64,000 nucleotides of DNA, from the NCBI GenBank assembly GCA_031763025.1, contig JASSKH010000001.1, forward strand, positions 11,387,102-11,451,101, in the 5' to 3' direction. Within the stretch, counting starts at the first letter, position 1; every line of letters starts with the position of its first letter. The position numbers and the translations under genes are program-made. Positions 18,768-64,000 of the stretch are shown here, piece after piece. This stretch comes from Macrocystis pyrifera. Taxonomy: Eukaryota; Sar; Phaeophyceae; Laminariales; Laminariaceae. A model generated the notes under the pieces. The model did no database searches. It was not told the DNA's origin and saw nothing but the letters and a program-made list of their open reading frames with translations.

Positions 18768-18845
18768 GCACCCCCAAAGCGAGTTCACTCGACACGAACG
18801 AGCTTGACAAAACCAAAAAACCAAGACGAAATCGCATGCGGCAAA

Positions 18846-23855: not shown

Positions 23856-24062
23856 AATCCACAGCAGTCCACCTGGACTCTACTGTAATAACGGAGAAAC
23901 TGCCGCCTGACCTGTGCGTCCTCCAGCTCCCGGAGCGTCCTCCCCTGCTGTGCGCTTCAAGCCGTTTCGATCCGTCCAACGGGCCAACTGCCTTCCCAGC
24001 TGTGACCCAATACTCCGCAGCCGAAAACTCCTCCAACAGAAGTTCCGCGAATATCTAGATAT
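23856..24062 (-). other. 5' leader of the retrotransposon
   Basis: The stretch between the 5' LTR and the Gag start codon; it should contain the primer-binding site and packaging signals. The bases directly after the LTR (minus strand ATATCTAGATATTCGCGG) do not match an obvious initiator-Met tRNA end. Confidence 0.6.
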
Positions 24063-24294
24063 TATGGCCTCTGCCAGATGATATCAGCAAGAGGGCTTCC
24101 AGCGAGGGACTCCACCAGTCTCGCTGGCCTCGCACTCAGTAAGTCTTGTTCTTAGAGCTTGTATTATCACGGAGTGATCCTCATCGGACCACGAGCCAGG
24201 TGGCTAGGGGACATCACACAGGATCCCCGGCCACTGCTCCACTCACACATGCGATTACACTGAAACCTCCACGGCTTGGTATCTTTTGGCTACA
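24063..24294 (-). repeat. 5' LTR of the chromovirus
   Basis: Same sequence as 18536-18767. It should hold the element's Pol II promoter (inference from its position); no TATA box stands out. Confidence 0.95.
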
Positions 24295-24298
24295 TCAC

Positions 24299-25360: not shown

Positions 25361-25362
25361 TT

Positions 25363-31131: not shown

Positions 31132-32340
31132 TCAACCCTCATTCGGGGCCCGTGTTGGCGAAATTAGCGGACATCGTGTGGCGAAAGCGGGGGTCCACCC
31201 AAGTCTGAGCTTGGGTCGGAGGGCGGCAGCCCACCCAAAACGACATGCACGGCGGAGGATCACCCCAACACCCAGGACTAGGCCGTGAGAGTGGATGAGA
31301 AAGACATGCTCTTTGTAGGACGGCGTGAGACTCCTGGGGCCGTCGCGGTCACGCTCCGTCGCTGGCAAGGACAGGAGGGCCAGGAAGTCCGCGTTCGCGT
31401 TGGCACTGCCTTTGCGATATTCCAAAGTGTAGTTGTACGCAGTGAGCAATTGTAACCATCCCTGTACCCGAGGGCTATGTTCTGATATCTTGTGGAGGCT
31501 TTCGAGCGCCCTGTGGTCTGAAAAAAGAACGAATTTCGTACCCCAAAGGTAGTCGCGAAGGCGCTTGATGCTCCAGACGATGCCGCCCGGTTCCAGGTCG
31601 AGCGGAGTCCAGTGGCGTCCAAACTCGATGGCAGCGCGACTGATGAACACGATGGGACGAATATTGTGGTCGTCCTGTTCTTGTTCGAGGGTGGCACCGA
31701 AACCGTCCACACTGGCATCACAGTAGACGAGGGAAGGGCGGGAGTTATCAGTGACGGCGTCCTAGTTGGGGTAGACGAGGACCGGGGGAGTGGTCAACTC
31801 GGCCAGGAGCTTCAGCACGATGGCTGCCATTCCTGGAGTAATGACTAACTTGACGCCTTGTTTCACAAGGAAAGGGATGGGCGGTATGCGCTTTGCCTTA
31901 TCGCGGAGGAGTTTCCTGTAGTAGGAAGGTGCGCCCAAAAGGAATCGTAGCTGTTTCCAGTCTTCCGGCATTGGAATTTTCGTCAGTGCTTCCACTTTCT
32001 GTGCGTTCGGCATGACGCCAGCCGATGATATGGTGTGACTGAGGAAATCTGCATCCGTGGCGCCGATGGTAGACTTTGAAGGGGACAATTTGCTATTGTT
32101 CTTTTGCAATCGCAAAACCAATTCCTTCATGTTGGCGATGCGAAGGGAGAGATCGGCGTCGACACTCCCAACGAAAGCAATGCCAGAGTTGTGTAGCTCA
32201 AGCTCAGTAATGCATGAATTTGGGGTCTGACCTGAATCAGGATCAGACAGGCAGGCGTCCATGCGAAAGTGTGTGTGGCGGGGGGGGGAGAGACGAGTAA
32301 GTTCGTTGTTCATGCCTTGTTCACGGTCGGATGGTAACAT
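31132..32340 (-). pseudogene. Decayed Ty3/gypsy reverse transcriptase - RNase H fragment
   Basis: Two minus-strand frames lie in domain order. Positions 32340-31762 encode the C-terminal RT region (ADFLSHTISSAGVMPNAQKV, then the connection PEDWKQLRFLLGAPSYYRKLL). Positions 31710-31132 encode RNase H (MDGFGATLEQEQ, DLEPGGIVWSIKRLRDYLWG, FSDHRALESL). The frame breaks between them, the YxDD box is not present intact, and no LTRs were identified. It differs in sequence from the complete chromovirus at 18.5-24.3 kb, so it is a separate, much older element. Confidence 0.85.
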
Positions 32341-39300: not shown

Positions 39301-40069
39301 ACAACCACTCAGGTTTTCGCCCCTAATTCTGTAACGAGGAAAACGAAGCAACTTCAGACTTCGGTACCACGTACTCCAGCCGCTTTTGAAATGCGCTCTT
39401 TCGCTCTCCTGACCACCATCTACGCTGCCACCGTGGGCACATCCTATGGTAAGACGAATATCTCGAACGAACCATTCAAGTGCAAGCTACGGAATACAAT
39501 CTTTGCTGTTGGTCTTCATGTCGTGGATTTTTTTCTTCGCATTGTTTCGCTACCCCCCGCCGCCATAAGGACCACCGCTGCTCCGCATGACTGCAATGGC
39601 GCAACGTCTGCACGTAGTTGATAATACCCTACATGGCGCGCGTCTTAGCGATACTTGATTGTAGTGTATCACCACCACCGTGTCCAACGCTTGACCCTTG
39701 TCGTCCAGTACTGTCAAGTCCGCAGACGCGTGCTACGGATACGATAACACCTTGTCAGGCTGAAACAGTTTCTGAATGACGGGTATACTAAACCCCGAAT
39801 AGTCTGAATATATCTTGGTATGTTAGAATATTTGCGTTTCATGATTATTACGATGTTCCCCTTTGGGATGTAGGTAACGTGAAATCCCGGGGGCGTCGAA
39901 AGGCGAAAAGGGAATCAGAGTTAACAGACGTATAGCTGTTCTTGACGTAAACGTGAGCCATGGGTAAGCGTATTGCTCGAAGGAAAGAGTGACTATTAAT
40001 AGTATTGCTATAGTAATCAGCAGGAACTGAGTACTACTCTTTCTGTCGTGAATACTGCAGTACGACATG

Positions 40070-41790
40070 CACGCGGTACCATGGGTTGACTACCTAGTAT
40101 TCTGTTACTATACACCACTACCACTACTACACAGATGTAGTAGAGGTAAAAGGAGGATGCAGTCTACAAAATACTACCTGGCACACTATACTACTACGAC
40201 TACTAACTGCACTACTACGAAGTACTACCGCTAGAGCATGATCCATCGCTAATACACGACAGTCAACCTCATGGAAAATAGAGAGGTGAAATCACCACTC
40301 GGTACCGTGGGTTAGGGCATGACTACTATGTATACTGTTACACTATACGTACACCACTGCTAGCAATACATAAATGCAGCACAGGTAGAAGCAGCAGGAA
40401 TAAATACCACCTGGCACACCACTGTTATAAGGCTTAAATTGGGCAGGACTGTACGGACCTTGTTGGGAGCGAAACCCATGGCGGCGCTGACGGAAATGGT
40501 GTACGCAAATTTTACATGAGGGATCTGTTCATCCCACTTGTTTTGGAGTTCGTTGACGATGGGTCATATTCCTGCGCGGAGCAGTATATAATGGCTGAAA
40601 GGGCTCGCCTTTTTCATGTCCACGACGCAACGGAGCGGACTATGGTCACTACTACGAGTACTACTGCTGCTACTATAGTACTAACTTTCATACAACGGCA
40701 ATGTAGCATGCAAGCGGTACCATGGCTTGGGGGCATGACTACTATTATACTAAACTTTCAATTTACACTACTACCACTACTACGCAGATAGATGTACCGT
40801 ATAAAGGGTAGAAGCAGCGTGCACGCTACAAAATAGTATACTACTGCGACTGATATATATATATTTTGGAAATATAGAGGCTACGTAATACATACGGTAA
40901 AAGGCATCTACTACTTTTGGCCAGGTAGAAGCAGCATGCAAACGGCAACAACAGCAATAGCGGACACCACAACGACTTGACGTCTATTGCTACTACTTAT
41001 ATTACTGGTGCTACTTCTGTTTTTTGACAGGGGCATTAATAAAAACATCGTGCACTCGGTACCATGGGCTACCATTAATATCAAATACTACGACCACAAC
41101 TGTTATATACTATGCCATAACTACTTCAGAAGTCTATACCTGCGTTCAAAAAACAGCGTCAATAGCACAGGAAAGTCAAATAACCAAAAACATAACTGTT
41201 TATATTAGTTGGAAGCAGCTTCTCTGTATGCATTCATATACAGGTATACGTACGGCTTGGGCACATGAAAAAGTTATCTGCATCTATGTGTCATAAACAA
41301 AAATCAATGACTGTCAAATAAGTACTCACTTCAACAGCAGCTACTCGTGGCAACAGCAGTAGAGGTCTAGCATCACTAATAACATCAAAAGGAAGCAACT
41401 AGTCCACATACGATTGAGGGCATCACGAAAAACAAATGTGCGTTAGTCATGAAATGTTTATCTCTACGTCTAAACTTATGACTGTCAATAGCAGTATAAT
41501 ATGCTCATGGATACAGAAGCAGACTCACGTCAACGACAGCACTACTATACCTTTGATTGTCAATACTATTACTGCCACTACAGTCACCTACTGTTGCTAC
41601 TGCTGCTTATATAATTCTACTATTACCAATAATACCACAACTGGTACTACTACAGCAGTACTGCTACTAATACTATTAAATACTACTACATACTAATCTC
41701 GTACGCACTACTACCACTACTACTCGTACGTACGTACATATTACTACTACCACTACTATACTACTACTGTACTACTACACTTACTATACG
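40070..41790. repeat. Triplet-rich degenerate repeats in intron 1 of unit A
   Basis: GGTACCATGGG-type words recur at about 40077, 40301, 40717 and 41056, each followed by ACTAC-rich sequence and a GGTAGAAGCAGCA-like or ACCTGGCACAC block. Further ACT/TAC triplet runs extend to 41790. Non-coding. Confidence 0.65.
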
Positions 41791-42159
41791 TTTACAACTA
41801 CTACAAATATGCCAGATACACACCGAGACAGGGGGGGTAGAGGGAGACGGGCGGCAGAATGAGGCTTGCTCTGTGGCCCTTGCCCCCGTCTGCGATAACC
41901 TGCTGCTAAGAGCGTGCGACTGGACAAGTACTGTAGCTAGTTGTGACACCAAAACACCTAGATACCTGGTGCATATGTCTCCCAGGTATAGGTGGACGGA
42001 GGGAGGCAGTTGTTTTGGCCACAAACATGCTCCGTGTTCGGTGTATACCACCCGTCAAAGGGCTTGATGCAGCAGATTCGACGGCTGACAGATGTGTACT
42101 GCTCTTGCTTCTGTATTTCTGCTGCTGCTACTGCTACTTCTCCTGCTGAGGTTGGAAAA

Positions 42160-43692
42160 ATCCAAGGGTGTGTTCTGTAGGGTACGGGTATTCTCTGTAG
42201 GATATTGGATTTGTTACAGAGATCACAGAAGTTCTCTGTAGGGTATGAAAGTGTTACAGATCGTCACAGATATTCTCTGTAGGGTATGGAAATGCTACAG
42301 AACCTCACAGAGAAATAGGGTATTGCGGTGGAGGGTCACAGAGAATGTTCTGTGGGGTATGGGATTTATTACAGACATCACAGAAGTTCTCTGTAGGGTA
42401 TCAATGTGTCACAGAACCTCACAGAAATCTCTGTAGGGTATGGAAATGCTACAGAACCTCACAGAGAAATAGGGTATTGTGGTGGAGCATGGGTATTGTG
42501 GTGGAGCGTCACAGAGCTCGTCTGTAGGGTACCTACAGTAAGGACCCACAGAGACATATGTAGGGTACCTACAGAGCGACGTCTGTAGAGCGTGTAGGCG
42601 CGTCTGTAGGTACCTACTTGCTGCGGTCTCCCTTTTTGCATGGGACCACCCGCTTCTTCCTGCGGCAATCTGAGCTTGCCATGCAGAAGAACTTGTGGTT
42701 GACGCCTCCGCTCTGCTCGACGTATGCTCCCAGCGAGTACATGTACGACTGCTCGCGAGAGCCTTTCCTCACAAAACCATCCGGCGCTCGGAATCCATCG
42801 ACCGCTATGACTATGTTCTGGGTCACCTCCACCACGTTCTCTTGCTTCGTGTAGACTACCGCCGGTTTGATTACGGGCACGCCTGTGCTTCCATCGACTA
42901 TCTGTACGTCGTTCGAGCCTTCCTGCTCCTTGCTCTCGCCACCTCAGCCTCCCTCTGACGTGCCTCCTTGTGTCTCGCCCTCGCCGCCTTCACCTTCTTG
43001 AACTACACCTGCCTCACCCGTGTCTTGCGGCGTGGAGGAACCGCTGGGGTCCGCAGTAGCACTCATGTTCCCTCACAATCCAGCTTCACACAGATGCACA
43101 CAGAGATTTTGGTGTGTGTGTGACTCTCTGTGTGGCCGTCGAGGCACGCTTCAAGTGTGGTTCGTGGGGCTGACGTCACGCACAGGCTGACGGGGTATTG
43201 CACAGATGTTTTACCCGTACCGCGGATATTGTTCTACCGTCCGTACAGACCGTCTCTGTCTGTAGGGTATTGGATTTGTCACAGAACATCACAGAAGTTC
43301 TCTGTAGGGTATGAATGCGTCACAGATCGTCACAGATATTCTCTGTAGGGTATGAAAGTGTCACAGATCGTCACAGATAGTCTCTGTAGGGTATGAAAGT
43401 GTCACAAAACCTCACAGACAATTAGGGTATTGTGGTGGAGGGTCACAGAGAATGTTCTGTAGGGTATTGGATTTGTTCCAGACGTCACAGAAGTTCTCTG
43501 TAGGGTATGAAAGTGTCACAGATCGTCACAGATGTTCTCTGTAGGGTATGGAAATGCTACAGAACCTCACAGAGAAATAGGGTATTGTGGTGGAACTGCC
43601 ACAGACGTCACAGAGGTCGTCTGTAGGGTACTTACAGAGGTTTTTTCTGTAGGGCACCGGTCTGTGATACCCTACAGAACACAACCTTGGAT
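42160..43692. mobile_element. DNA transposon derivative with dense subterminal repeats
   Basis: The outer ends are inverted: ATCCAAGGGTGTGTTCTGTA on the left and the complement of ATCCAAGGTTGTGTTCTGTA on the right, both continuing into GGGTA. Inside each end is an array of about 40-bp units (CTCTGTAGGGTATG ... CACAGA) at 42175-42600 and 43250-43680, mostly in the same orientation. A single-copy centre holds one coding remnant. The flanks GTTGGAAA and GTTCAAAA could be a decayed 8-bp target duplication. Subterminal arrays plus an 8-bp duplication would suit hAT-like elements, but the family is not established. Confidence 0.72.
42614..43066 (-). pseudogene. Coding remnant inside the transposon, zinc-finger-like
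   Basis: A 151-codon frame from ATG (43066-43064) to TAG (42616-42614), broken only by an in-frame TGA at 42946-42944 (codon 41). The first 60 residues are Gly/Glu/Ser-rich. The C-terminal part has a Cys-x5-Cys ... Cys pattern (FFCMASSDCRRKKRVVPCKK) that could be half of a BED-like DNA-binding finger of a transposase. No catalytic domain follows. It may be the truncated N-terminus of the original transposase or a small accessory protein. Without the stop the frame would be intact. Confidence 0.5.
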
Positions 43693-45608
43693 GTTCAAAA
43701 TCTATACAGCAGAGGGGGCTAATAAACGTGTTCGGGGGTGGCGGGCTGTTTGCCTATGAGAAAACAATGGTAGGGTTTTCCATGTCACCTACTCGGGTCG
43801 GCGAGACCGCAAGCAATTGCGTGTTCTTTACATGAAGCTCAGCGATGTTCACTGCTCCGAGCACCACCAGGGTGTTAGGCCGGGGTCCAGACATGCGTCA
43901 TAATCTATCCGCAACCCCCTTGCTGGCCCCGCAGCCCAATGTGAGAGAAATAACACTCGGGCTCCTGAGAGCAGCATGTAAAAAACAAAAAGTGCATCTT
44001 TGCTGTATTGATATTAAAATCATGGTCCATGAAATTGTTCATCGGGTACTGTACTGTAGCTCTTGTATTTTCTTCATAAATCAGTTGTCGGTCGTCACTG
44101 AAATTTACATCTTCATTCAGTCATACGGCGAGCCTCACAAAAGAACCGGTGCACCTTTTCCGCAGGATGCGACTGCAGAATACGGAAAAACAAGGATCGG
44201 GTAGTTTAATAAAAGCCCTACCGATACTGCCCAGTTTCGGGAAACACGCTGTGTGTGATTTCACCTTTTCAAGAAGAACCTACGGTGACTACCATGCCGG
44301 ATATTTATCCCCAGGTTCTAAATGAGCGTCATCCTTCTCAGCGCCGTCGGACTGCGTATGTTAGTGAATCACAATAGTTTGACAGACGCGTGACACTGTC
44401 TAGGGGTTGCCATTTTCAGCCCACACATTCCTCTTTGTCTGAGTGTCGCTAATTGCAGCATATTTGCACACAATTTTCAACGATGAGTTTCGACCACACG
44501 AAAAGGATTCGATGTCACAGGTGATGTTAAGCTTTTTTATTAAATATATATTTCTATATTTTCTTGAAACCCATGGAGTTGCGCATCGGGCGAGGAGCCT
44601 CCTACAGTTTAGACGGCTCCCCTATGATAACAAGTGACACCTGCTAACATAGAGGTTCACCCATATATTTCGTAGGTTTCTTACACGAGGAGTCCTTAAT
44701 CTCATCCTACAACTGCCTGTGATAAAACTGAAAGTGCAACCCGATGAACAAACCTATGTCCTAGGTATAATATGCACCTCATGCTTTGAACAAAGAAATA
44801 TGGTATTCGGACGATTTTTGGACATCAAGCTCAGTCATTCACAATAGAAAATCACAAAAAATGTGCTACTCCTATCGCAGCACGCGTAAAATGTCTGCAT
44901 AAAGATGTAACATGCACACTGCTCATAGGCACGAACCGTAGGCACTTGACTATATTGACAGGTAGTGGTTGGGTAGGTGGTAATTGTCTGCATTCTCACT
45001 AGGAATAGCGAGATAGGTCTGTCCCCCCCTCTCTCAAATAAATGTAGAAAAAAATATAGAGATGAAGAGAGACGAGTTGGTGACCCGGTACCGACCCGGT
45101 TATTACCTCTACAATAATGGCTGAATATCTTCCCCCGTCCATGCTGATTTTGTGTCACTCGCCGTCCTCTTGCAGCCTTAGTCGACTCTCCCGTCCGGGA
45201 AAGCAGCAATGGTGACAGCGTCTGGGTACGACGAGAAGACTTCGTTTCCTGGCTGTGGCCCGGATGGTTGCATTCCCGAAAACACTCGGGACTACAGTCA
45301 CTCAAACAACTCTCGCTGGTCATGAAAGGGGGACATCCTTGATGATGATGGCGAAGGATTCTGGATCGAGTACTAAGTTTGGCGAAACCCTTGATATCGT
45401 CGAGCTGCGAATCCTGTTTTAGGGGGTGTGTGACTACATCGGAACGCTCGAAGTGGACGATAACGATGCCTACCACAGCAAGGTCAAGTCCAGCGGCGAG
45501 AAGGATGGGTACCAGACCTTCTACCTGAATTCCGATCAGACCACTCTGTTGAAGCTTCACCTCGTCGACTGGGAGTCCAACAGCGACATGCGAATCAGCC
45601 TGACAGAG

Positions 45609-48600
45609 GTACGTCAAGTACGTGACGTTGTATATGCGTGCACCGAAGCCATTTTGAAGGAAGAAGTGATAATTTTGACTCAAGGAGTACATTTGACGAG
45701 AACATGTTAACTCGCGTGTCTCTGAAGCACTGTAAAAATTATCAACGTGCCGGCTAATGATCTTGAAACAGGCCGACACTGCGTCTAAAAGTGTGGTTCG
45801 TAATGAATTGGATCCAAAGGAGATGGTTATGTTGTGGGGAGGCTACGTGGTTCTTCAGACACGTTGATTCCGGTAGCGACGCCTCGCCGACGTACCGCTG
45901 CTCGAAATACCAGTATATATTGCGTACAACGCTGTCAAAAACTCGTGGTGAACGCGGTACTAAGGCGTTTTTCTAAATGACAGAATGCTTTCTACGATAA
46001 GGTCTGTTTTGCGCTCTCTTTGAGCAAACCTTTTCTGACTGACGGGGGCTGCTAAAGTGAGGACCAGCCTAGTTCTCGCTAAACCTACAATAATATTGTA
46101 CACTGGGTTTTCGTTGCATACATAGGCTATGCGATTGTCTGTCTGAATTATACGTTTCTTCAGCGTTTGGGTGGCGCACGGGTCTCCTCAATTACGGTGG
46201 CCCAAGAAAACGATGGAGCTACCCCTGTTGCGGCCCGTCTAATCATAAGCGATGGTTCCTCGGTGATGCATATAAAAACCAGCAAAATCTCTGAGCAGAA
46301 CCACCTGCGGGCAGGTATTGGTTGGGAGTGCGGATACATCCATGCACAATTTACACGCTGCGGGCATGGCATGGCAACAGTTTCCTGTTGAATATTGATC
46401 AGGCCGGAGAAGATTGATCAGGCTGGAGCTAGTGAAAGCCATCCCGGCCGTTGAGTAGTGTACTCTATTGATTCAGTATGTCACATATCCGGTGATAGAT
46501 CCAGAGTTGGACTCGTTTTCGGGAATGCCTGAGATGGAAACAGCGCAGCTTCATCACGCGAAATGGGAACCAAGGCGTTTATTCATCCTTTCATTATGGA
46601 ACTTGGTGATTATCTACTAAATCGATATCACCGAACTGTTTCGCTTAAGAAGGCTCCGTCATTCGTTGCGCTATGGGCATACTATTTAGCAGCGGGTGTG
46701 GGCCTCAAATGGTACAAGCTTTTTAATATCATTGTCGACATGTCTTGTTTTTTAATTGGTTTGAGTCGATTCCCGTTACTGTCAGTTCTAACGACGATGA
46801 TATCCCGTTACATGTTGTGCCGAGCTTTGAAATCGACAAACAAACGGCCATCGTGCCGACCATGCAAGGGAATAAGAGCCCATTTTCTGTCGCTGATGCC
46901 CAAGTTCCCTACGTATCTTACGATGCCACTTCACATGTGCCAACGACACTCAGGCACACGGTTCATGGTGAAGTGACACCTCATCCCAACCTGGCAGGGC
47001 CTGGTGAAGAACAGGTTACTGAATACCACCCCCTCCCATGTGTGGTTGCTTAGTTCTTGATGAAATCAGTACTTTGTATGGTCGTTAGTAGTACAAGTTC
47101 CTCTTCCGTGTGGCGTGCGGGCAGTGCTCGATCGTGGGACATGGCGTCTTTCACACCACACCCGACGCATACGTCTATGAAGTGGACGCACTTTACGCGT
47201 AGGTACGTAGTAACTCGCAGTATGGATAAGCGGACGTTGAACACAAATATTATGAGCTCGGCCTGCTGTTACTGCGTTGTAGAAATCCCGCAGGCTTAAC
47301 GCATAGCTCGGTCCAAGAGGCGGCCCATCTGGCCGGACGTGCCCTCTGACGGTATAGCAGTGTGAGGGCTTGTGGAGAAACGCGACATTAGATTACTATA
47401 GATTCATTTTTATTGGAGACATGTGTTGCGGTTAACATTTGAAGACTCGGTGGACATCGCAACACGGTGGGCGTCCAATATGTGGGCGGCAAACATTTGG
47501 TGCTCATCTGTGTGCAGACTTAGCAAACATCGAGATGAGTTGTCGCTCGTCGTTTGTTTGGGATTGGGTCGGTCCCAGGTGTTCTAAACCTATGGTACCG
47601 GTCTCGACCGTATGCTGTGTCGAACACATGACCATGACGCGGACACAGAGACGTACCATCTCCGAACTGACTTGGGTATAGAAGGTATATGCATCGACAT
47701 TCGGACTTGAGCTAAATACACGCGGTTGGGGAGAGTTCGAGATTTTCAAGTTGAATGGTTGAAGGTTTCATTTGTTTGTTCATAGATATTGCTGACACAC
47801 CGTGCATGTAGTGGCAAAATAGACACGAGTCAAGTGACGGTGGACATGTTTGAGCGATACTCGATATCGGAAGTCGAGTCAGTACCAGGCCAATCTGCAG
47901 CCATGCATAATCGTATTGATGAACAACTCTTAGATTTTCGGTTGTCAGCTATGGGCTTCATGTATATGTGTGTGAGAACAAACATAGACGCACAACGACG
48001 TCGAAATCGCCACGGCCCAATGGGGTCCACCCCCTTCGCCGATACGGGAGGGCGCCCGACATGCGTCCGAAAAACATGACGGCATTATTATTCCCATTCA
48101 ATGGACTTCAACGAAACCGTCTATCAATAGCGCAAGTTGGACACATTGTGTGTACATCGTGATACGATGACGTCGGACAGCAACACAGCCCGCAACCACT
48201 CACAAGACTAGTGGTATGCAGTAACTCATTACCTACCATGACCGCTGCCAACACTTCTCGACGGCGCTGAATCTCACATGGTCACGCAGGAGTATTCACT
48301 GTGTCTTCGTAGTGTCTATTGTGGCGTTCTTCCACACAGGGGGCAACCAGCTACTCTTGCGTTTAGTTTAGCTATGTCACCACCTACTCTGCATGATACC
48401 ACTGGGCTCTACATAGATGTTCACCCCATAAGCTATACCAGCAATTAGCTTTGGTTGCCGTCTTGCTATCAAGCCTCCGGTTTAGCTCGCCGGGGATCAC
48501 CCCGGAGGAAGGTTTCTCGAGTGTATGAGGCCCGCCGGTGAATCCGTCGATATGCTAGCAAAACCCAAGTTCGGCAGATCCCCCCCTGCCACCCAACGAC

Positions 48601-51600: not shown

Positions 51601-53200
51601 CAACACCGTAGCAACGTTCGGGCAACGTTCCAAGCACCGACTGATCGTGATGCATCGGATATATAATAGACAGTACTACGAGTATGACACAATCGAGCAG
51701 ATTGCATTTACCCGTACTCACAACAGATTGACAAGATGCTAATATCCTCGTGTTCGCGCGTAGTTACTGAACATGAAAATAAACACTATTCATATTGGAT
51801 GTTAACGCCCATATGCTAACATTATGTATGTTCGGGCATATTTGTTAATTCAGAGTAGCCCAAAGCTATGATGGAGGTTTCCTTTGGGACTCATGGACAC
51901 GTGAATGGAAATGCGGACTGTGGGAGGACCTCACCAGCTATATTCTCCGTGCAGGAATCAGTAAATAGGGAAATTTAATGCCATATTGCACACCGAGGTC
52001 AGCGTATTGTGTTCAGCATGTGGCCAGCCGAATCCGCCTTTAATAGATGGTATATTTTGTCAATAATACGAACGTCTTCGAAGCACCAACTTACTGGACT
52101 CAGGATAGCGCACAACGTACTCAAGCATATAGAACAGTTCAATCAGACAGTTTCCCTTTGCACAGATGGGACGTAACCCGTGAGTCGATTTCAGTCAACA
52201 ACGCCGTGCATCCCACGATAACGACATAGGACGCGCCAATATATTTCGGAACGCAGGTATATTTTCCAAAAATGTACTACACACGAATAGTGTTGAGACT
52301 AACATCGCGGTCAAATTCCGCAAGCAAGCGTGTACCACATATATAAATAGTGTCAACACAAACACTCGAACACGGCGCAACCCCATATCAGGCGCGTTTC
52401 TAGTCCGGGTTTGGTCCGAGTTGGGGTCAACGTTAGGGATAGCGTTAGGGGTTCACTTGGGTCTGGGCCCGTGCCTTGATCCCATTATTAAACGTGAGTT
52501 TTACCCCAGTTACATACGCGAACAATCAGCGGCCCGACATCTGGAAGATACTACAGTAGTATATTCCAAGTCGCTACCAAGAGAACTCCAGCAAAGCGTA
52601 GTATTCCTTCACGTGAAACATGGTTAATGCAATGCAGACTTGGGGCCCCAAACTAAGATGGTAGCAGTCAACCACGTCAGTCAGCGCCGGGCGTCGTAGA
52701 CAAGATCGGCGCACCGAAACACGGGTACACAAGCAACGTACGCAGTTGCCGACCAATCTTGTTGGAGCAGTCAAGATACACAATATCCCGTATTGACGTG
52801 TACGCTATCACTTGGTTTCGAGCACGGCCTCCGTTTCAACGTTCCTTGCGTTCGACTATTTGAACGTGAACATGGTGTGTGTTTGCTGACTCGTGTTGTG
52901 TCGACCGGCACCATTTCAAACCCAGATAATTTCTGGCTGGAACTGCGCTGCCTGGGGTGTTCAGAAACTGTTACGAGCCTGTTCGAATAACTTATTGTCC
53001 AGTTATCCCGGATTGTGCAATCTGGTAATACTAGGGGTGATTCTGGTACCTGAAGCAAATTCTGGGAGGGGACAAAATGCTGCGCTAGTTCAGTCTTTGA
53101 GATGGCTTTGTAAGGCAATGTCCTGTCCCGACATACCTGTATTTGGTCTGTACTGCCCACCACTACCACTCCTCTGCTCTACTCACTATCTAAACCACGA
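45609..53200. other. Inter-unit DNA of the tandem array (A to B)
   Basis: Blocks here recur downstream of unit B: 46430-46560 matches 56270-56420, 46980-47050 matches 57718-57790, 47560-47700 matches 58290-58440, and 49440-49500 matches 62320-62385. Frames in these blocks are not conserved between units, so coding is unlikely. A plus-strand frame at 46167-46391 follows an acceptor-like TTCTTCAG and might be a lost exon. Positions 49640-51530 seem specific to unit A. Confidence 0.55.
50760..51010. repeat. Degenerate ~70-bp tandem repeat
   Basis: Words of the type GTGNGATGGCNNAAAAA...TTTGACGC recur at about 50804, 50878 and 50948. Diverged; no coding assignment. Confidence 0.55.
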
Positions 53201-53253
53201 CAGAATACTCACCTCCAGACAAAGGCGCACAACGTACTCCAGCCGCTTCCAAA
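52940..53253 (+). promoter_or_regulatory. Conserved 5' flank of unit B
   Basis: This segment aligns with 63640-63913 upstream of unit C (shared GGTTCTACTGCCTGAAG-like and CTTTGAGATGGCTTTGTAA-like blocks). The bases just before each ATG are alike in all three units (CCGCTT followed by A-rich sequence). Such retention suggests the promoter and 5' UTR were duplicated with the gene. No TATA box is assigned. Confidence 0.5.
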
Positions 53254-55492
53254 ATGCGCTATTTTGCTCTTCTTGCCGCCATCTACGCTGCCACCGTGGG
53301 CACCTCGTATGGTAAGTAGTATCTACACATGGGATTCCTCACGTATGAGCTGTGGAACAAATACGTATCAGTTATGAGATGCCATGCTGTTGACTAGGGC
53401 ACGCCATGATTCCCCGTAGACCAGCGTTTTTCCCCGCATGATTCAAATGTTACCACTGCGATGCTCTACAGTAGTTGTTGGTACTGTTCATAGAGTGCCC
53501 CTCGACTGTGAATCAATGTAGTTTACCTTCATCGCAATTTTTTGTTTGTACCGTGTGATCTACAAATGATACTGAATTTGTGTACCCAAACGACTGTGGC
53601 CCGGGATGTCCGCCCATCAAGTTTGTGCTCTGCATCTTTGATCCCGTCAAAACGGGTTAACCCTTGAGGTGTTTGTCAGATATTGGACAAATACTCATTT
53701 TTATTGTTGGTACCGTCGCAGGGTGTATATAAATTGCAAATCACGCGACAGTAATATTTACCGAGCACAATGTCTACAAGAGAGCGTTTGACCGAGGAAA
53801 TGGCAGACTAGACATCTGTAATCGATTTCGGTTTCAGCGTCTCGGAGCGTTGCCGGACGGCGGCTACCTTTTCATTATCAACACTTACTCGTACGCGATT
53901 TGAGCTCGCGACATACGCCTCCATGGACGTGTTTTGTTGCGCCGCACCACATCACTGTGCCTGACTCTACGTTTGAGAAAGGTACAGAATCACTCGTTCG
54001 AGTGGCCCAAAGGCGGGAGTGAAAACGCGTGTAGCCTGCCTACCATCGCACTAGTCCTGGAGGTGCTTGACTGCATAGACATATATGAGGCAGGTGGGCT
54101 TCCTGTTGGCCCTTACAAGCTGTGACAACTCGGTTTGGTTTATCCATCATCAGTTCAATTCATGCATGAATATTAAAAGGTCGGAAATCCGGTATCCATG
54201 CACTTAACAGCAACAGAGCGTGACTAAAACGGAGTACAGAACCGTTGCTTTCCTACCTAGAATAATACCTACTTACAGTACAGCAGGTCATAGACTCGCA
54301 TTCATCCGATTGTGAACGTAGCGCCGATTGGACGTCACAACTCCCAAAACGTTCGGATGAGTCGACACTAGCATGTGCTACAAGGCCATTCCAATCAGTA
54401 TATATGTAATGCAACTGTTGGAGTATGTTCGCTTAGCATGCACTGCTACATGTCGGGTCTCAAATGTCTCGCCGTCAACTAGCCTGTATGCTCAAAGTAA
54501 TGCGATTGAAAGTGGAACATGTGTGTCAATATAAAACCCTTGTTATTCGTTTGTTTTGACATGCCGGATGATCCTGAGTTCATCGTTAGCACTTGGAGAA
54601 GCTTCGTACTGCAAGTCACTCGTGTAAGAGATGTAGCCATACCAGCTTGTTGAATAGTTTCGGACGAGAATTGAAATGTGCTATCCAAGCATGGGGTAAT
54701 TCTGACAAGGCGAAGGTTCCTTCGCGAGCTGCGCAAAATTGGTGGACGAACAACGGAAACAGATTTCGTGTGTGTCTGTGTTGTGTGCAGTACATATTAT
54801 TTATAAGCCCCATCAACTGTTCTTGTATATGTGCGGAGCCATCTACTAGCCACAGGCTTCTACGAATATTCACCGCCGAAAGGCACAACACCGAAATTCT
54901 AGTAACACGTTTAAGTACGCAGTCCTGCAGGCGAATCCAAGGCGCACAGTTCAGACTATTGAACAATACGCCTACGAGCCTAATGGCATTCCGCCGCAAA
55001 TCGGTATTGTTCGTGTCCCATGCCGTGCCCGCTTCAGCCCTAGTTGACGCGCGCGACAGGACAACCGTGGATGTGGCTGCCTCTGGGTACGACGAAAGGA
55101 CCTCCTACCCTGGCTGTCGCCCGGACGGATGCATTCCGGAAAACACTCGTGACAAAAGTCGCTCGAGCAACTCTCGCTGGTCGTGCAAGGGGGACATCCT
55201 CGACAATGATGACGAGGGGTGCTGGATCGAGTACTACTTTGACGAGCCGCAGGACATCGTCGAGGTGCGCATCTCGTTCTACAAGGGCACCGAGAACACC
55301 CGGAAGCTCGACGTGTACGACAACGGTGGTTACCACAGCCAAATCGAGTCCTCCGGCAAGACGAACGGATATCAGACATTCTACCTGGACACTGACGAGA
55401 CGGAAGAGCTGAGGCTTTACCTCCATGACTGGAAGTCCAACCCTAGCATGTGGCTGAGTATTAAGGAGGTAGGTCAGAACCGTGATTCTTGA
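53254..55492 (+). CDS. Unit B: secreted CBM32-like (F5/8 type C) protein
   Basis: Exon 1 (53254-53311) encodes a signal peptide, MRYFALLAAIYAATVGTSY. The phase-1 donor G|GTAAGT joins an exon starting at 55038 after acceptor TTCAG; the joined codon is Ala20 and the frame stays open. Residues 28-163 form a discoidin/F5-8C fold candidate: N55TRD, R66WSCKGD, W82IEYYF, V96RISFYKG, G130YQTFYL, W158LSIKE. This is the pattern of CBM32 modules found on alginate lyases and other polysaccharide-active enzymes. Four Cys (46, 51, 69, 81) could form disulfides. Inferred role: an extracellular or cell-wall glycan-binding protein. The frame stops at 55492 (170 aa), but a donor GAG|GTAGGT at 55469, mirrored in unit A, suggests possible splicing to further exons that I could not identify. 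No catalytic domain is seen. Confidence 0.78.
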
Positions 55493-58400
55493 GTACTACT
55501 AAATCGGAAGCGTGCATGCGGGCAGAAGTCAGGTTCCGTACGCGAGGAGTACTTATGACGACTCCAAGATTGCTCACGTGTCTCTACAACAATCTGCAAC
55601 ACAACAACTCTAGCTGACGGGTGCTCGTCCAGTCGACGGAACGATGGTACGTAAGACATTAGAGTCAACGGAGTTGGTTATGTTGGGAATACACCATGCC
55701 TCGTAAACGTTTTCGACTTTTGTGGGAGCGCTTCATCGAGGTACCGCGTCTAGAAAAACGTACAGCGTAGAAACTCGGTGCGCGTATGACCGTATGGGTA
55801 TTAGTAGTGGGGATTTTAGCACATTGAACAGCGGGTGTCAACTGATTTGCGATAGAATCCAGTTGCCTCTGAGGCGAATCCCCCTGGGGTCAGAGATTAT
55901 GTTCGCGTGTGTATACGTCCAAGTGATAAAAACATGGATTAGGGGCGGCATACGTTCAAGGTGTTCGCTTATCGAAAAGCGTGACGTACGGGTTCGCTCG
56001 GGAGATGTTCTACGATAGAGCTTCACCCTAAACTGTATGAGTCTCCTCCCTCAAAGGAGCTCCATACCCACCCGAACACTGACTTCAGTATGAATCAAAG
56101 TGCATGCCAACGAACAATCTCATGGCCCAAGTACAATAAAAAGTCATTTATCGGAACATGACAGGTGTTCCGACGTTTTGGGTTGAGGAAACCCGTCATT
56201 CAGAAACGATTTTAGCGGAAATGTGCTACCTCTATCGTAGAACGGGGCTCAGGAATACCATCGAAGGTTCAAGTTGGTTGAACCACCCTGGTAGTCGAGT
56301 AGTGTACTCTAATGTTTGAACATGTCTCAGGTAGGACGTGTCCTGCAGAACTGGACTAGTATTGGTTCATACCATCGACATAAACTACACAGCTTCAATT
56401 CGCTCCATGGGAGCCACTACATTGGGAAATCCCTTTGATATACATCTTGACGGTGAGATAAAGGTTGTCGTCACCAGTCCTCCACGCTCAATAAGGGCCC
56501 CGGCATCTTTGCACTAATGTTGGATGACGAACCAGCGTGGGCCAACCGCTTCAAACTTCTCAGTACTGTTGCAGTGTCAACAAGATTGGTTCAAATGTGG
56601 CGTTCCGTTTTCCATTACTAGAGTGTTCGCGATAGAGGTGAAAAAAAATAATACTTTACTTCCATAAAAAAAGTGAATTTTCTTCCCTTCCTGATTTCGG
56701 TGTGTTTGCGAGTGAGGTAAACCAAACCCTACAAGCGACGCGTCCAAAAATAAGAAGGGAAGAGGGGAGGTGAGGCAACGCGGCAAACAAAAAAAAGAAG
56801 AACGAAAAAAAAAACAGCGTGCGAGTAGCAACGGCAGCCCAGCAACTTGTCGGCGACTGAGTTGACCGCGAAGACACCACTGCCATCCCACGACTGCAAA
56901 CAGCAGCTAGGGGCAGCTTGAGCAACAAAAACAACAGCGTCAGCACCAGCACCAGCGCCAACCAGCTTCCGTTTTTTTATTGCTGTTGCTGCTGCTGTTG
57001 CTGCTGCTGCTGCTTGAGTATGGTGAAATCGAAATGATACACGAGCTGTCATGCAGTCGCGCTCTGTACGAGCACGAGTACGAGCACGTGTGAGTACGAG
57101 TCCTTTTTTGGGACGACGGATCCTCCACGTCGTCACCAACCGGGGGAAAGCGTGTACCGTAGCAGCGGCGGCGGCCTGAGTCCAACGACGCCCAGCCGCG
57201 TTATACCCAAGCTACGCCTCTCAAGCCTCTGTGCTTCCAGCGGTTGTCGTGATGCGCACCAAGCAGCATGGTGGCATGGAAGATGCTCGGTGTTTTGACC
57301 CTTCGAGATTTGAGTTGCGTTCTGCGTCGGGATAATGCTCGGTGCGTGTCGGCCAATGAAACAGAGAGCCAAAAGTCACCGCAACGTTTGATGAAATCCT
57401 GACTTCGCTGAAGTACTTTTTTGCCTTTTTTTCGAACATTTACCTTGAAATGGTACCTCGGGAGAATTTTTAGAGAAGTAAAAGTAAAAAGAAATATAAT
57501 CGCAAACACTCTACTGTACACTCTAACGACGACGTTTTAATGGCGCTGATGGTTTTCAGGCGACGTGTGCATTGTGAAATAACGATAAACAATGGTGTTG
57601 ACCTTGCCAACTTAACCACTCGCTTGTTTTGGCTCCGATGTATTACGTCCCTCCGTCTTCGCTGATGCTCCTTCATCTCGGACTACAACATTCAGGTGAT
57701 GATCATGGTGGAGTAAATCTCCATCCCAACCCACCAGGGCGTGGAAAAGATCCGATTGCTGAATACCGTCCTACGCCCGAGTTCTCGGTCAAACCCGCTA
57801 TTTGTGTGGCATCAGAAGTAGACGTCCCTTCTCCGTATGGCGAGCTTGCACGGTACAAGCAGGGAATCGGACGTGTTACACACACCGTCGAATATTTGCG
57901 CCTGTGGAATGCAACAAACTCCAAGTCAGGGCGTAGCTCGGTGTGTGTATGTATACGTTCAAACCTATGTGGATGGAATTGATTGGGTGGTACTGCGTTG
58001 TGCGGTCGGTGGCTGAAAACATATGCTTACCGAGGAGGCAGCTGGTCCTGCTAGAAGTTCCTTCCAAACCTATGAAGGCTACGGGAGAAGAAGCGTTAAT
58101 CAGTCAGTAGTTATTTGCTTGGTTTGGGAGCATGTGTAAAGTGTTGGTGTTTGAGGTCTCGGTTCACGTCAAGACACGAAGGTCGTTCATCGTTTGTGAT
58201 TGGGAAACCTATGGATGTGATATGCGTGTGTGCGTCGAAAACGTCGAGGTGCGTTGTCTGTGGTTAATTGTTTGCATTTGGGCCGGTTGTACGCGATCTG
58301 GACGGATCGTACCGGTCTCCATCGTATGCTGTGTCGCAGACACAAACATGTGATGCCGATACAGGGACGTCAGGTTCCATCGTATCCCTCCGATTGGGTT

Positions 58401-59516
58401 GGGTATTTCGTGTGTGGGTGTCGGCATGGGTATCCGTATTAGAACCCGAGCTCAATAATATCATTGGGGCGATCTCGAGGGCTTCAAATCGATCGGTGGA
58501 GTAAGTCGTTTCATTGATATTGTTGGTCCCGGCCGCCCTTGTAATTGCGAGGCAGGTTTGACTCAGGTAACATGGGACTGTTCGGTACTTTTGGCCGAAG
58601 CCGATCCAGTGCGATACCAATCTGTAGCCATCCATAAACGGAAAGCTTGGATACGCGTTGCATTAGACCGTCGAGTCGCTTCGAGCGCGAGGCATGTAAA
58701 CGTGCGTGGCAAGGGAGATGGTGTCACAATGACGATGATTCACCATGGAAAAATGGAGGCCACCTCCAAGGCTGAATCAGGATGGTGCTGGAAGTGCGTC
58801 TGGAGAAATATAACAACATTGATACTTACGTTTTTGTGTCTTCAACATTGTCGGATAGCTCAAGCTAAGATGTATAAACGTGGTTACGTTATTAACTGTG
58901 ACGGCGACTCAAATCGCAGCCACCCACAGGGCTATCGGCATATCGTAAGCCATGTGCTTCGTATGGCTGATGACGACGGGGACGGCAGATATACACGTAT
59001 CACTTACATGGAATCCAGCAAACATTCTCTCGAACGCTCTGAATCTCGCATTGCCAAGCACAAGTATTCCGTACCTCGAGTTCTCGCCAATTGTGCGGTT
59101 CTTGCACGAAATAAAACAATCAACGACCCTTCGCTAAACTGCTGTATAAGCACAACCTACGGCACATCGTGCAATGCTGCTCGACATGTATATGTACGCC
59201 GTGACCATCCCAGACATTCAGTTTGATCGGTCTTTTGCAAGACCTTCTTGAATTGATTTAATGGGACTCCAACGACATTTGGTAGTTCCTGTGCTTGAGA
59301 GCCTCGTCAGGCAGAAAATCTTTGTCCAAAACGTTCTATCTCTATTCGAGCACGAGGAAAAGTGTTAGTGTTTCCACGGAACAAGAACGTGATACAGCTC
59401 CAAAACAAAATCAGCTAACAGCTCTATGCTCACAAGGCGGAAGTCGGCATTAAACACGGTTTTTCACACCAATGTAAGGCCTCATTGATCATTGTTTTGA
59501 GTTGATTGATATATAA

Positions 59517-59766
59517 AGGTAAAGACGCAGCTGGCACGAGAACGCGTGGCTGACTCCAAACATGTCACGGAACTCCTCTTATACTACATCCTGGCTGTCG
59601 AGTTGACTCGCCTTATATGCAGTATAGAGTTACACCTGACGAGTGGCATTGGTGGGCACACGTTACAATGATAGCCCAATGCCCTACTGCCAGAACCCCT
59701 TTCCAACGTGGAACTCCTCAATCTACGATGGATCTTATTTGTCGTGTTTCTGAGTACAATCAACAT
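59517..59766. repeat. Direct repeat, left copy
   Basis: About 240 bp, similar to 61803-62040. Shared strings include GACGCAGCTGGCACG, CACGGAACTCCTCTTA and CACCTGACGAGTGGCATTGG. The pair brackets about 2 kb of sequence not recognised in unit A, so it may be an LTR-like pair or a local duplication. Divergence between copies is clearly visible. Confidence 0.85.
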
Positions 59767-60257
59767 CCCCCCTACTCACTATACACGACCATACTAATAT
59801 CCCCCCTGCTCCTGTATATGACCATCAATATTCCCCCCAGCCCCGTACATGTAAATGTACGACATCCCAGGGCTGATATATCTCAATATTATATTCAACT
59901 CAAATCAAACTCAGATCGTCAAAAATCCAGTCTGGAACTCAAAAATCAAATTCTTGAATCAACACTCAAAATCCTCAAATCACCATTCAAATGCTCAAAT
60001 TCCCAGCCTCTCTATTGCAAACACATAAAACTCTCGAAATCTAATGCCAGGTAAAACGACATTCTTCTCGGATTCAGTCAGGTAAAACGGCATTTTCCGC
60101 GGAATTGATCCGAGGATATTCCGTGGAATCTCGTCGACTTAGTAACAGTGATTTCCGGGGCCCTCCCCTCGCCAAACGCTACTGGTGTCTACAAGCACAC
60201 TATCCAAATAATTCGTATTGTCTCCAGCGCACACGCTCGAAATAAACAACTTATGAA

Positions 60258-60335
60258 TTCGGCGAGACTTGAACCCCCGACCCACCCAATGGAATTATAT
60301 AACACTACTTGCTAGACCAGTCAGTTAGCGCTGAC
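60258..60335 (-). repeat. tRNA-like sequence, possible SINE head
   Basis: On the minus strand an A-box-like TGGTCTAGCAAG (60320-60309) is followed about 33 bases later by a B-box-like GGGTTCAAGTCTC (60276-60264). The T-stem has mismatches and no acceptor stem pairs, so this is not a functional tRNA gene. It differs from the SINE family at 14-28 kb. Confidence 0.5.
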
Positions 60336-61802
60336 GTTGAACGAAAGCACAATTTTTCAAGAACCAAAAAAATCAAACTCTCAATTTCCGAAGTACTGCC
60401 CAAACCTTCCTATCTACTGTCAGAAAACAGTATAGTATATGGACCGCACACACCCCCAGGCGCTTCCTAGTCTCTCTTCAGTCTCGTCAAAAACCTCTGT
60501 CTCTATCGTACAGGAAATTAATTCAAAGGATGGAAAAAATCACAAACAGTAGTCTTGCTCACCAAAAATAAAAAAAACTAAGCAAACAAATTATAATGCT
60601 AGAGATCGCAAGGAACCCAGTTCCTCCGCACAAGAGTCCCTACTCCCGACATAGATACACAGATCGCGACGGTATGCGAGATAGCATACATCTCTTTTCA
60701 CTGAAGTTTTATTCGACGTTGAAACCACTCGAAAACTCCAATAACTCTCGCGGAATCCAAATCGACCAGAAAAATAATCCGAAAACACAAACAATGAAAT
60801 ATTCATCCAGATTCACAGGCAACCATACTTCAGTAAGAATCACCCCGATGTCCCGAACACAACTGCTGTTGCCTCCGCCGCGGCTGCCTCTCCGTCCGGT
60901 CTCATGGCGTCACCGCAGCTCGGGTCATCCAGCTTATCCTCCTTGTGCGGACATAAGCCCTTGCTGGTGGCGCCTCGGTCCCTTCTCTTTCATCCTCTCT
61001 CTCTTGGCGCAGCGCATCCGGAACAGATGATGCAGACTCCTCCCCCTGGGCCCATCTTCACTCCTTCCCTCGTCTCCTTCTTCGGGGGCAACGTCCTCCC
61101 CATCAACCACCTGCGGGCGTGGTGCTTCAGCAGTCCAGGCAAACGATTCTGCCGGAACACTTTCAGCGTCGCTTCCGCGCTCTCCACCTTCCCTCCCGGC
61201 TCTTGCCGGCCAAACTCCCTCTTTCATATAATATTATACGCTTTACATCTACGACGCCAGCGCGCAGCGAACCCACAGATTCAGGCAGATGCCTGGCTAT
61301 CCCGGAGTATTGCAGAAGCGACGGATACGCGGGGGTCGAGACGTTGGCGGCGGCAGCGGCGGTAGCGAAGACGGCGGTTGTCTAGGCGGCGGCGGTAGCG
61401 GTGGTTCCTGCATGCCCTTCGTCGTCGCAACAAAAGTGCAGCAATCCTCTGACTGCTGAGGTTGCTGACGGTACTGCTGGAGCTGCTGCTGCCCCTGCGA
61501 CTGCTACTCTTCAGCGCCTTCGCCACCAGTGCCAATCGAATCTACCAGGTCCGGCTCAAACTTGACCCTGCTGGGATCGCTGCCGCTTCTGGTGCAGCAT
61601 CTCCTGCCTCTCCTTCTGACGCACACGTCCTCTCCTCCAGGACCTCGATCTCTTCTTCAAAATACACACGCTGGTACCCTGACTAAGCACATCATCTAAC
61701 AACAGACATGCTGGAAGCAGATTCCCACCTCTCTAGGTTGGCTTGGGCTACGCTTGCCGATAGAAGATCACCGGCTTTCACTAGTGTGCTGTTTAATCTC
61801 CA

Positions 61803-62040
61803 AAGGTATAGACGCAGCTGGCACGGGAACGCGTGCCTGACTCCAGACTTGACACGGAACTCCTCTTACATTACATCCTCGCTGTCGATTTGACTCGCCT
61901 TATATGCAGTACAGAGATACACCTGACGAGTGGCATTGGTGGGCACACATTACCCGATATCCCAATAACCCTTTCCAGCATGGAACTCCTCAATCTACGA
62001 TGCATCTTATATGTCGTGTGTCTGAGTACAATCAACATTT
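61803..62040. repeat. Direct repeat, right copy
   Basis: Partner of 59517-59766. The sequence then continues into a GTATCGAGGTATGCAAC block that has a counterpart downstream of unit A (about 49163), so the normal duplicated unit resumes here. Confidence 0.85.
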
Positions 62041-63314
62041 TGTTAGCGGTATCGAGGTATGCAACAAAGCCTATAAGCTGAGAGAAACGTTATCCTACAG
62101 TCCACATGAAGAACGACAAGCATCCTAACAAACAGGCTGACCCTGATCATCGCTGTCTACATAGGCGCGGGGGCGGTTTTCAATTATCGGGAACTTGCTC
62201 AATGTTCACGCCAGTGATTGGCCACGACCATCGGCCGCCACTTTGACCTATGCCTTGCCCACGACCGGTGGTTTAGATGCGTGTTAAGGTGGGTATATAG
62301 AAAACAAAGCATCGAAAAATGTTAAGCTACTGGAATCGAGGGGGTCCCACTCGCGAATCTCCCCGGGGCCGTATTGAATACTCTGCAATATTCAACTGGC
62401 ATCAGCTCGATTTCCAAAAGCGATGTACCGTTTGAATTCGGAATGATTGGGTCCGTGGTGGGTACTTTACCTCCTACCTTTGAAATCATATCGCGTCAGA
62501 TGACCTGCAATATGTCCCCCCCGGGCAGTCTCGAGAGCTCTTAGAGCTCTCCGTGTTCTATGTGCAGATATATACCTGGTATACAGTGCTGCAGTAGGAA
62601 CAAATTCTTGCGTTTTCCACTCAGGCTCTTGGTAACCGTGACGGAAATAATAGTGTGGCGCTATGATTGGACATCACAAGCTATATGCTCCGTAACGGTA
62701 CTAAAATATGGGGAAATCGACTGCCGTACTCCACACAGAAGTGCGTGCAGGGCGTTCAGCAACAGGTGGAATAAAACAACTTGAAATTGATGCAAACCAT
62801 ATCTCACAACTACTCTAATGTCATGATACAACTTGCTTCGAAAGAAGTTTCTGCTGGACTAAGAAGCTCGCACTATGAACTGCAATACATGCGTGCACTA
62901 CAACGGACAAACAAAAAGTAAATTCCGCTCGGACGAATAGAGTACGTCCGTGCGCAGGTGTCAGTCAACAAAATAAATCCACCTGAATTGGACTTAGGAT
63001 GCACCTTCATCTTTCCACGATGTACCACGTCTAATTTTCCGGGCATGTATTACTCGCTATCAGTATCGCAAGGGATATCGTCGTCCACAGTCTTCAACGC
63101 CACATTTCTGAACCATCTCGGGTAAAACACTCGAACACCCATGTCTGGCCCGTTCAGGCCCGTTTCGGGCCCGAGATTGGTCCGGGTTGGACTGAACATG
63201 AGGTATCGGCTCAAGGGCCGGATTGGGTCTACGCCCGTGCCTCGATCCCACCGTGGGAAGTGATTCCTACGCTCGATAGACGTGATCAATCGGCAGATCA
63301 ACCCCCGAAAGACA

Positions 63315-63426
63315 CTATTACGGGGGACCATAGTAAATAGGACCAGGTAATGTTGGTAAAAAAAGGTAAATATATGTTTTTTTTGTCTGTACCGTAGGTC
63401 CTATTTCCTATGGCCCCCCGTGATAG
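63315..63426. mobile_element. 112-bp hairpin MITE in the 5' flank of unit C
   Basis: Thirty-base inverted repeats (left CTATTACGGGGGACCATAG..., right complement CTATCACGGGGGGCCATAG...) are separated by about 52 AT-rich bases. The matching place upstream of unit B (about 52545-52565) lacks it while the sequence on both sides still aligns, giving an empty site. There is no coding capacity. The short TA-type insertion point suggests a Tc1/mariner-like family by inference. Confidence 0.8.
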
Positions 63427-63639
63427 TCCATCCTAAGTCGTTTTCAAAAGGAATTCAGCAATGCGTGAAATTCCTCCAAGCAGACAAATGTTAGGTTATT
63501 TCCGGATTGGGGCCTTACATTGGCATTGTAGCGGCCAACGATAACAGGTCATCGTTGGGGAATTCTTGACACAATCGCCGTAGAGACGCCCAGGTACCCA
63601 AGCGAAGTATGCTGTTCCGGTAGTTGTTGTCAAAACGGC

Positions 63640-63913
63640 CAGCCGAAAAAATTGTTGTTCAGTTATGCCCGGTTATTCGTCCTTTTCAAGCTAAGGATGG
63701 TTCTACTGCCTGAAGAAAATTATGGGATGTGGCAAAACGCTTCGCTAGCTCAGTCCTCGAGATGGCTCCCTAAAGCAACTTGCTGTCACTACCTTCGTGT
63801 ATGGTTTCCGTGTTCGCCCCACCATGTCCCACTCTTTCTCTTTCCCCTCAGTGTAAACAACCACAAAAAAAAAACGTCCAAACTTAGGCGCACTCTACTC
63901 CGGCCGCTTTACA
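63640..63913 (+). promoter_or_regulatory. Conserved 5' flank of unit C
   Basis: Counterpart of 52940-53253, with the same order of blocks up to the start codon. Probably promoter and 5' UTR; core elements are not identified. Confidence 0.45.
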
Positions 63914-63971
63914 ATGCGATATTTCGCTCTCCTGGCCACCGTCTACGCTGCCACCGTGGGTACCTCCTATG
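63914..63971 (+). CDS. Unit C: signal-peptide exon of CBM32-like protein, partial
   Basis: Encodes MRYFALLATVYAATVGTSY and ends in a phase-1 donor G|GTAACA at the same position as units A and B. The exon is exactly 58 bp in all three. The second exon is beyond the window, so intactness cannot be judged. Confidence 0.8.
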
Positions 63972-64000
63972 GTAACATGACAATCAACATGGGACTACTC

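What the first reader, a model, noticed from the sequence alone, without database searches (positions are those of the whole stretch)
39391..64000. Three-unit tandem array of a secreted CBM32-like gene
Exons of 58 bp with nearly the same signal peptide and the same phase-1 donor occur at 39391, 53254 and 63914 (spacings 13,863 and 10,660 bp). The inter-unit DNA also aligns in several blocks. This is a recent multi-copy expansion of a probable extracellular glycan-binding protein; in a brown alga, alginate would be a natural ligand. I know of no description of this locus.
Basis: partly seen in the sequence, partly recalled or inferred. Interest (0 to 1): 0.75.

Follow-up and report, generated by a model that had tools for sequence, protein, structure and literature searches.

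The report
Kelp mega-array of secreted CBM32-like genes
The window cuts through part of a 2.3-million-base cluster holding about a hundred copies, some broken, of a small gene in what looks like a kelp; its predicted secreted protein most resembles the modules with which bacteria grip cut ends of alginate, the alga's own wall polymer.

The parts
53254..53311 (+). Unit B exon 1 (58 bp): start codon and predicted signal peptide MRYFALLAAIYAATVGTSY, phase-1 donor GTAAGT
   Evidence: signal peptide judged by eye, no predictor run
55038..55468 (+). Unit B exon 2 (431 bp): CBM32-like jelly-roll domain, open; acceptor TTCAG, phase-0 donor GAG|GTAGGT
57696..57716 (+). Unit B exon 3, coding part: V-M-I-M-V-E-stop after acceptor CAG; last strand of the domain
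   Evidence: counterpart in 25 of 50 loci; homologue P0044 ends SITEVQFMVE
39391..39448 (+). Unit A exon 1, open, donor GTAAGA
45149..45608 (+). Unit A exon 2: broken copy (in-frame stops and a frame break), so a pseudogene
46954..46976 (+). Unit A exon 3 relic with a 2-bp insertion
63914..63971 (+). Unit C exon 1 without a detectable exon 2 or 3 in the following 10 kb
52984..53253 (+). Unit B upstream region, aligned with 63644-63913 of unit C in a 335-bp block (72% identical, exon 1 included); promoter role inferred

Best explanation
The window holds part of a giant tandem array, in a kelp-like brown alga, of three-exon genes that encode a single-domain, about 170-residue CBM32-like lectin. 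SHOWN: the array, its lower-bound size and block structure, open exon-2 frames in most full-length copies, protein-level constraint on exon 2, and a predicted fold closest to uronate-binding CBM32s with calcium-site residues and key tryptophan conserved. INFERRED: secretion, from the N-terminal sequence. INFERRED: the protein sits in the alginate-rich wall and holds uronate residues of alginate, by analogy with AlyQ most likely chain ends or lyase-cut fragments. INFERRED: many near-identical copies are kept because they raise the amount of one product (dosage), not because they diversify recognition. INFERRED: the array grew by repeated segmental duplication of whole units (upstream region, exons, introns), with decay of some units, as in A and C.
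Confidence: 0.55

Rival explanations
1. Damage sensing: the proteins bind lyase-cut alginate ends and present or buffer oligoalginate signals in kelp defence, in the manner of a soluble pattern-recognition lectin.
For: AlyQ CBM32 binds cleaved but not intact alginate (abstract and passages of PMC5651945), and its complex with 4,5-unsaturated mannuronic acid is the best structural match. A homologue carries a leucine-rich-repeat stretch before the same domain (P0044). Laminaria digitata reacts to oligoguluronates (passages of PMC3123347).
Against: No sign of diversifying selection on exon 2 as a whole; no membrane or signalling part in the array gene; no expression data. The LRR fusion comes from another record, and the search for it in this genome did not complete.
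Confidence: 0.2
2. A structural wall lectin for another glycan (fucoidan or a glycoprotein sugar): CBM32 folds bind many ligands.
Against: AlyQ and YeCBM32 lead both structural lists, and AlyQ is the only profile hit among PDB sequences.
Confidence: 0.15
3. A largely decaying gene cluster with little present function, kept large by unequal crossing over.
For: 12 of 82 near-full-length exon-2 places on C189 carry stops, units A and C in the window are broken, and 6 of 16 exon 1s found elsewhere look broken.
Against: 70 of 82 have no stop, and dN/dS of exon 2 is well under 1 in every bin.
Confidence: 0.08

Closest known systems
CBM32 of alginate lyase AlyQ (Persicobacter; PDB 7d29, 7d2a, 5xnr)
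   Different: AlyQ's is a module of a bacterial enzyme; here a stand-alone eukaryotic protein with four conserved Cys that have no Cys counterpart in the AlyQ alignment, and without Arg at the R248 position in unit B
YeCBM32 (PDB 2jda, 2jd9)
   Different: Bacterial; about 25% identity in the structural alignment; no array known to me
Brown-algal relatives, annotated only as unnamed products (e.g. P0007 Laminaria digitata, P0082 Ectocarpus)
   Same: Same domain; P0082 and P0115 also join a similar N-terminus to ALVDARKRTTV, the same exon 1-2 layout
   Different: Copy number and arrangement in those species not established here
Mannuronan C5-epimerase clusters of Saccharina japonica (105 genes, 43 of them clustered on seven scaffolds; PMC4421812 passages)
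   Same: Large tandem wall-related family in a kelp; clustered Beta_helix matches exist in this genome (that they are epimerases is recalled, not tested)
   Different: Different fold; none of the 120 Beta_helix matches listed lies in C189 11-13.5 Mb

Membership tests
CBM32 / F5/8 type C | Beta-sandwich (jelly-roll) fold of the family | tested here: met
   AlphaFold pLDDT 95.5; CBM32 chains lead Foldseek and VIA-align
CBM32 / F5/8 type C | Profile match over the curated cut-off | tested here: not met
   Unit B: PF22633 15.3 bits against 27.8, the only family at E <= 1. For the 26 other members of alignment A1 only E-values are listed (best 3.2e-5 for PF25302, 0.0012 for PF00754), not bits against cut-offs. 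The family profile does find AlyQ CBM32, E 1.4e-6. Hence CBM32-like, not filed as a CBM32 member
CBM32 / F5/8 type C | Conserved structural calcium site | tested here: met
   N36 76/77, D39 76/77, S or T46 77/77, mapped by alignment to residues named in PMC5651945; coordination itself not measured
Uronate-binding CBM32 (AlyQ, YeCBM32, AlyB) | Critical Trp (AlyQ W303) | tested here: met
   W139: 72 W, 5 F of 77
Uronate-binding CBM32 (AlyQ, YeCBM32, AlyB) | Carboxylate-binding Arg (AlyQ R248) | tested here: not met
   Position 87: R 40, N 28, D 7, Y 1, S 1 of 77; N in unit B; a neighbouring R89 in 74 of 77
Uronate-binding CBM32 (AlyQ, YeCBM32, AlyB) | Measured binding of uronates | not testable with these tools
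   needs protein
Secreted protein | Cleavable signal peptide | not tested
   Hydrophobic N-terminus seen; no predictor on hand
Tandem gene array | Repeated whole genes, same order, adjacent related copies | tested here: met

The most novel reading that the evidence does not exclude
The array encodes the alga's own alginate-end-binding proteins, dosed by dozens to about a hundred genes: a soluble system that caps, seals or reports cut alginate, and a first molecular candidate for how kelps recognise oligoalginates.
Probability: 0.2. Interest if true: 0.8.

Novelty: new variant of a known kind. Interest (0 to 1): 0.52.

Why it matters
If right, one of the larger gene arrays of a kelp serves to bind the alga's own wall polymer. 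The fold match to modules that hold cut alginate ends turns 'how do kelps sense or manage alginate breakage' into a direct binding test on located genes. Nothing describing the family or the array was seen in the listings of the paper searches run here; that library holds open-licence papers only and the searches were by words, so this is no proof of absence.

Tried and rejected
Exon 2 as a module of a larger protein such as a mannuronan C5-epimerase: rejected for this family, because conserved islands downstream lead to a terminal exon with a stop and no Beta_helix match listed lies in the array. The conserved block 47525-47654 / 58239-58370 as a coding exon: its tblastx similarity appears in several frames on both strands, so it is treated as non-coding. 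The ORF at 58459-59226: no Pfam family at 0.001; a 0.13 hit to an oomycete effector model is below cut-off and taken as chance. Viral or bacterial origin: no relative confirmed in viral contigs (24 pattern matches) or genome contigs (21 pattern matches) at that tool's sensitivity, and none in the phage records; EsV-1-164 stands first in the viral fold library and was not pursued (no paper found). The 'Paracoccaceae' and 'Roseobacter' MAG proteins P0012 and P0016 are read as algal DNA binned with bacteria (inference). Diversifying selection as a reading of the array: not supported (no site-wise test was run). A codon model in IQ-TREE gave a tree likelihood but printed no omega. Copies of an LRR-fused form in this genome: not answered. 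Exon 3 of subfamily 8 is uncertain: a 6-mismatch candidate 3.2 kb downstream, but a second 6-mismatch place in the same 15 kb is probably chance.

Full report
WHAT WAS CHECKED. Units A and B share 11 plus-strand blocks (E <= 0.011), all in one order; one short minus-strand match does not fit. Apart from exon 1 (86%) these blocks are 70-78% identical, and the DNA between them does not align at that setting.

GENE STRUCTURE. Exon 2 of unit B (55038-55468) ends in GAG before a splice donor. In 80 distinct copies examined, 79 have GT there and one GC. Islands conserved between subfamilies, one shared with a copy on another contig (C199), led to a third exon beginning CAG|GTG.., coding about six residues and a stop: 57696-57716 in unit B. 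A counterpart at 0-6 mismatches (shuffles 8-12) lies within 1.5 kb downstream in 25 of 50 distinct loci, and exon 1 within 1.5 kb upstream in 16 of 50; the others may have them further off, as unit B itself does. Of those 16 exon 1s, 10 are open in phase 1 (9 by script; L073 read by eye, the pattern having missed it), 5 lose the frame in a run of T (decay or assembly error) and one (L031) lacks start codon and donor. Proteins from other records end in the same way (SITEVQFMVE in P0044), and two Ectocarpus products join a similar N-terminus to ALVDARKRTTV. The spliced product is 169 residues. Transcripts were not available, and no signal-peptide predictor was run.

STATE OF THE THREE UNITS. Unit A keeps exon 1, but exon 2 has in-frame stops and a frame break and exon 3 a 2-bp insertion. 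Unit C has exon 1 only: no exon 2 or 3 was found in the next 10 kb, and the capped list of the genome search shows no exon-2 copy from there to 11,523,656. Unit B is the only intact gene of the window.

SIZE OF THE ARRAY. The window is C189:11387102-11451101 of a 537-Mb assembly in 223 contigs. Exon 1 has 15 matches, all on C189; 14 of the 15 have an exon 2 downstream on the same strand within about 0.9-8.1 kb (compared by hand), the exception being unit C. Exon 2 gives 150 scored matches of 189 candidates, a lower bound. Merged, these are 144 places: 103 on C189 over 2.34 Mb and 41 on eleven other contigs, many of the latter more distant (32-50% identity). On C189, 82 are near full length and 70 of these have no stop; median spacing 16.5 kb; 68 on the plus and 35 on the minus strand, but 50 of 51 on the plus strand between 11.84 and 12.80 Mb. 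These counts concern exon 2 alone, so they overstate whole intact genes. A second query gave 150 scored of 196 candidates.

EVOLUTION. Of 88 loci processed, 8 repeats of the same place and 3 with stops were dropped, leaving 77 copies with open exon 2, 64 of them on C189; the other C189 places were not fetched. Subfamilies occupy contiguous blocks, the two largest almost wholly on one strand: 40 copies of one at 11.85-12.79 Mb (39 plus, 1 minus) with a 41st on C201; nine of another (eight at 12.86-13.11 Mb on the minus strand, one at 11.09 Mb); seven at 13.30-13.41 Mb (three minus, four plus). Unit B groups with copies at 11.52 and 11.56 Mb. Pairwise dN/dS (ratio of means) is 0.15, 0.09 and 0.13 in the dS bins 0.05-0.1, 0.1-0.2 and 0.2-0.4, and 0.34-0.36 between dS 0.4 and 1.2; 13 very close pairs (dS under 0.05) have 0.47. 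Pairs are not independent, and no site-wise test was run. Among the 77 the nearest to unit B has dS 0.38; a stop-bearing inverted copy at 11.58 Mb, dropped from that count, is nearer (94% over 247 bp, 89-90% over the longest blocks). Some pairs elsewhere are young (L014 and L015 98% over 1.5 kb downstream; L028 and L029, and L054 and L055, identical in exon 2). So the window's units are old, and duplication has gone on since. Exon 2 is conserved rather than diversifying. High dosage of a conserved product is the simplest reading (inference).

FOLD AND SITE. The exon-2 domain models at pLDDT 95.5 (alignment). By Z the first eight solved chains are AlyQ (16.1-16.4), YeCBM32 (15.3-15.7) and AlyB (14.5-14.8); the next is 14.2, so AlyQ and YeCBM32 stand apart while AlyB is tied with non-uronate chains. 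Foldseek's first seven are the same three proteins. The family profile finds only AlyQ among PDB sequences (E 1.4e-6); unit B alone gave only weak hits (E 0.11 collagenase, 0.69 YeCBM32). Unit B does not reach a curated Pfam cut-off, so the protein is called CBM32-like. AlyQ residues were taken from passages of PMC5651945 and mapped through the alignment: calcium-site residues and the critical Trp are conserved, the carboxylate-binding Arg is not in the same place. Four Cys are conserved in 76-77 of 77 copies; in the alignment AlyQ has none there; disulfides are inferred. Net charge is -12 to -14 in 44 of 77 copies.

WHO HAS IT. Named ones are brown algae (Laminaria, Scytosiphon, Ectocarpus, Choristocarpus, Ascophyllum, Sphacelaria, Pylaiella and, by record name, Undaria), apart from two bacterial MAG proteins. 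None was confirmed in the bacterial and archaeal genome scan or the viral contig scan. The species of the window is not established; size, clustered Beta_helix matches and nearest relatives suggest a kelp. The S. japonica draft is also 537 Mb (abstract of PMC4421812), while a later S. japonica assembly is 516 Mb (abstract of PMC11836290).

LIKELY MECHANISM. Secreted into the wall (inferred), the domain holds uronates of alginate (inferred from fold and site). AlyQ's CBM32 binds cleaved but not intact alginate (PMC5651945, abstract and passages), so chain ends or lyase products are the favoured ligand. Whether this serves wall structure, sealing of breaks, or sensing of oligoalginate is open; kelps do respond to oligoguluronates (passages of PMC3123347).

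LITERATURE. The listings of the paper searches showed nothing on this family or array. Of the papers named, only abstracts and passages found by terms were read; in the brown-algal wall-gene survey PMC11468063 the term CBM32 does not occur in the main text.

Noticed in passing
window 18536-24300: LTR retrotransposon with RT, RNase H, integrase and zinc-knuckle domains in one 1677-residue open frame on the minus strand; its 238-bp terminal repeats are 99.6% identical, so the insertion looks young.
   Followed up: partly
window 25351-26331 (+) and 31132-31761 (-): Fragments with weak reverse transcriptase (E 4e-5, under cut-off) and clear RNase H matches, of other retroelements.
   Followed up: partly
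window 42191-43637: Direct repeats, 75-95% alike, inside the enlarged intron 1 of pseudogene A.
   Followed up: no
G000 C214 3.4-4.8 Mb, C191 6.8-7.2 Mb, C199 4.6-5.0 Mb, C189 7.28-8.1 Mb: Clustered Beta_helix (PF13229) matches, perhaps mannuronan C5-epimerase arrays of this genome.
   Followed up: no
P0044 (393 aa): Homologue in which a leucine-rich-repeat stretch precedes the same domain, a possible receptor-like relative.
   Followed up: partly
P0107, P0111: Undaria and Pylaiella proteins with Notch (LNR) repeats before the same domain (P0107).
   Followed up: no
BFVD Q8QKV2 (EsV-1-164): An Ectocarpus virus protein is the best viral fold match, E 5.8e-8.
   Followed up: no
P0012, P0016: Proteins labelled as bacterial MAGs are 66-70% identical to the algal domain and are probably algal DNA in the bins.
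   Followed up: partly
L033, L037, L057, L060, L069 (exon 1 in C189 11.85-12.01 Mb): Exon 1 of five subfamily-8 copies differs in the length of a T run (7, 8, 7, 10, 7 instead of 6), which breaks the reading frame; slippage decay or an assembly error.
   Followed up: partly
L054/L055 (C218 5.83 and 6.98 Mb), L028/L029 (C189 13.366 and 13.391 Mb), L035 (C201): Identical exon-2 copies over 1 Mb apart on C218, an identical pair on C189, and a subfamily-8 copy on another contig: recent duplication or dispersal beside older units.
   Followed up: no
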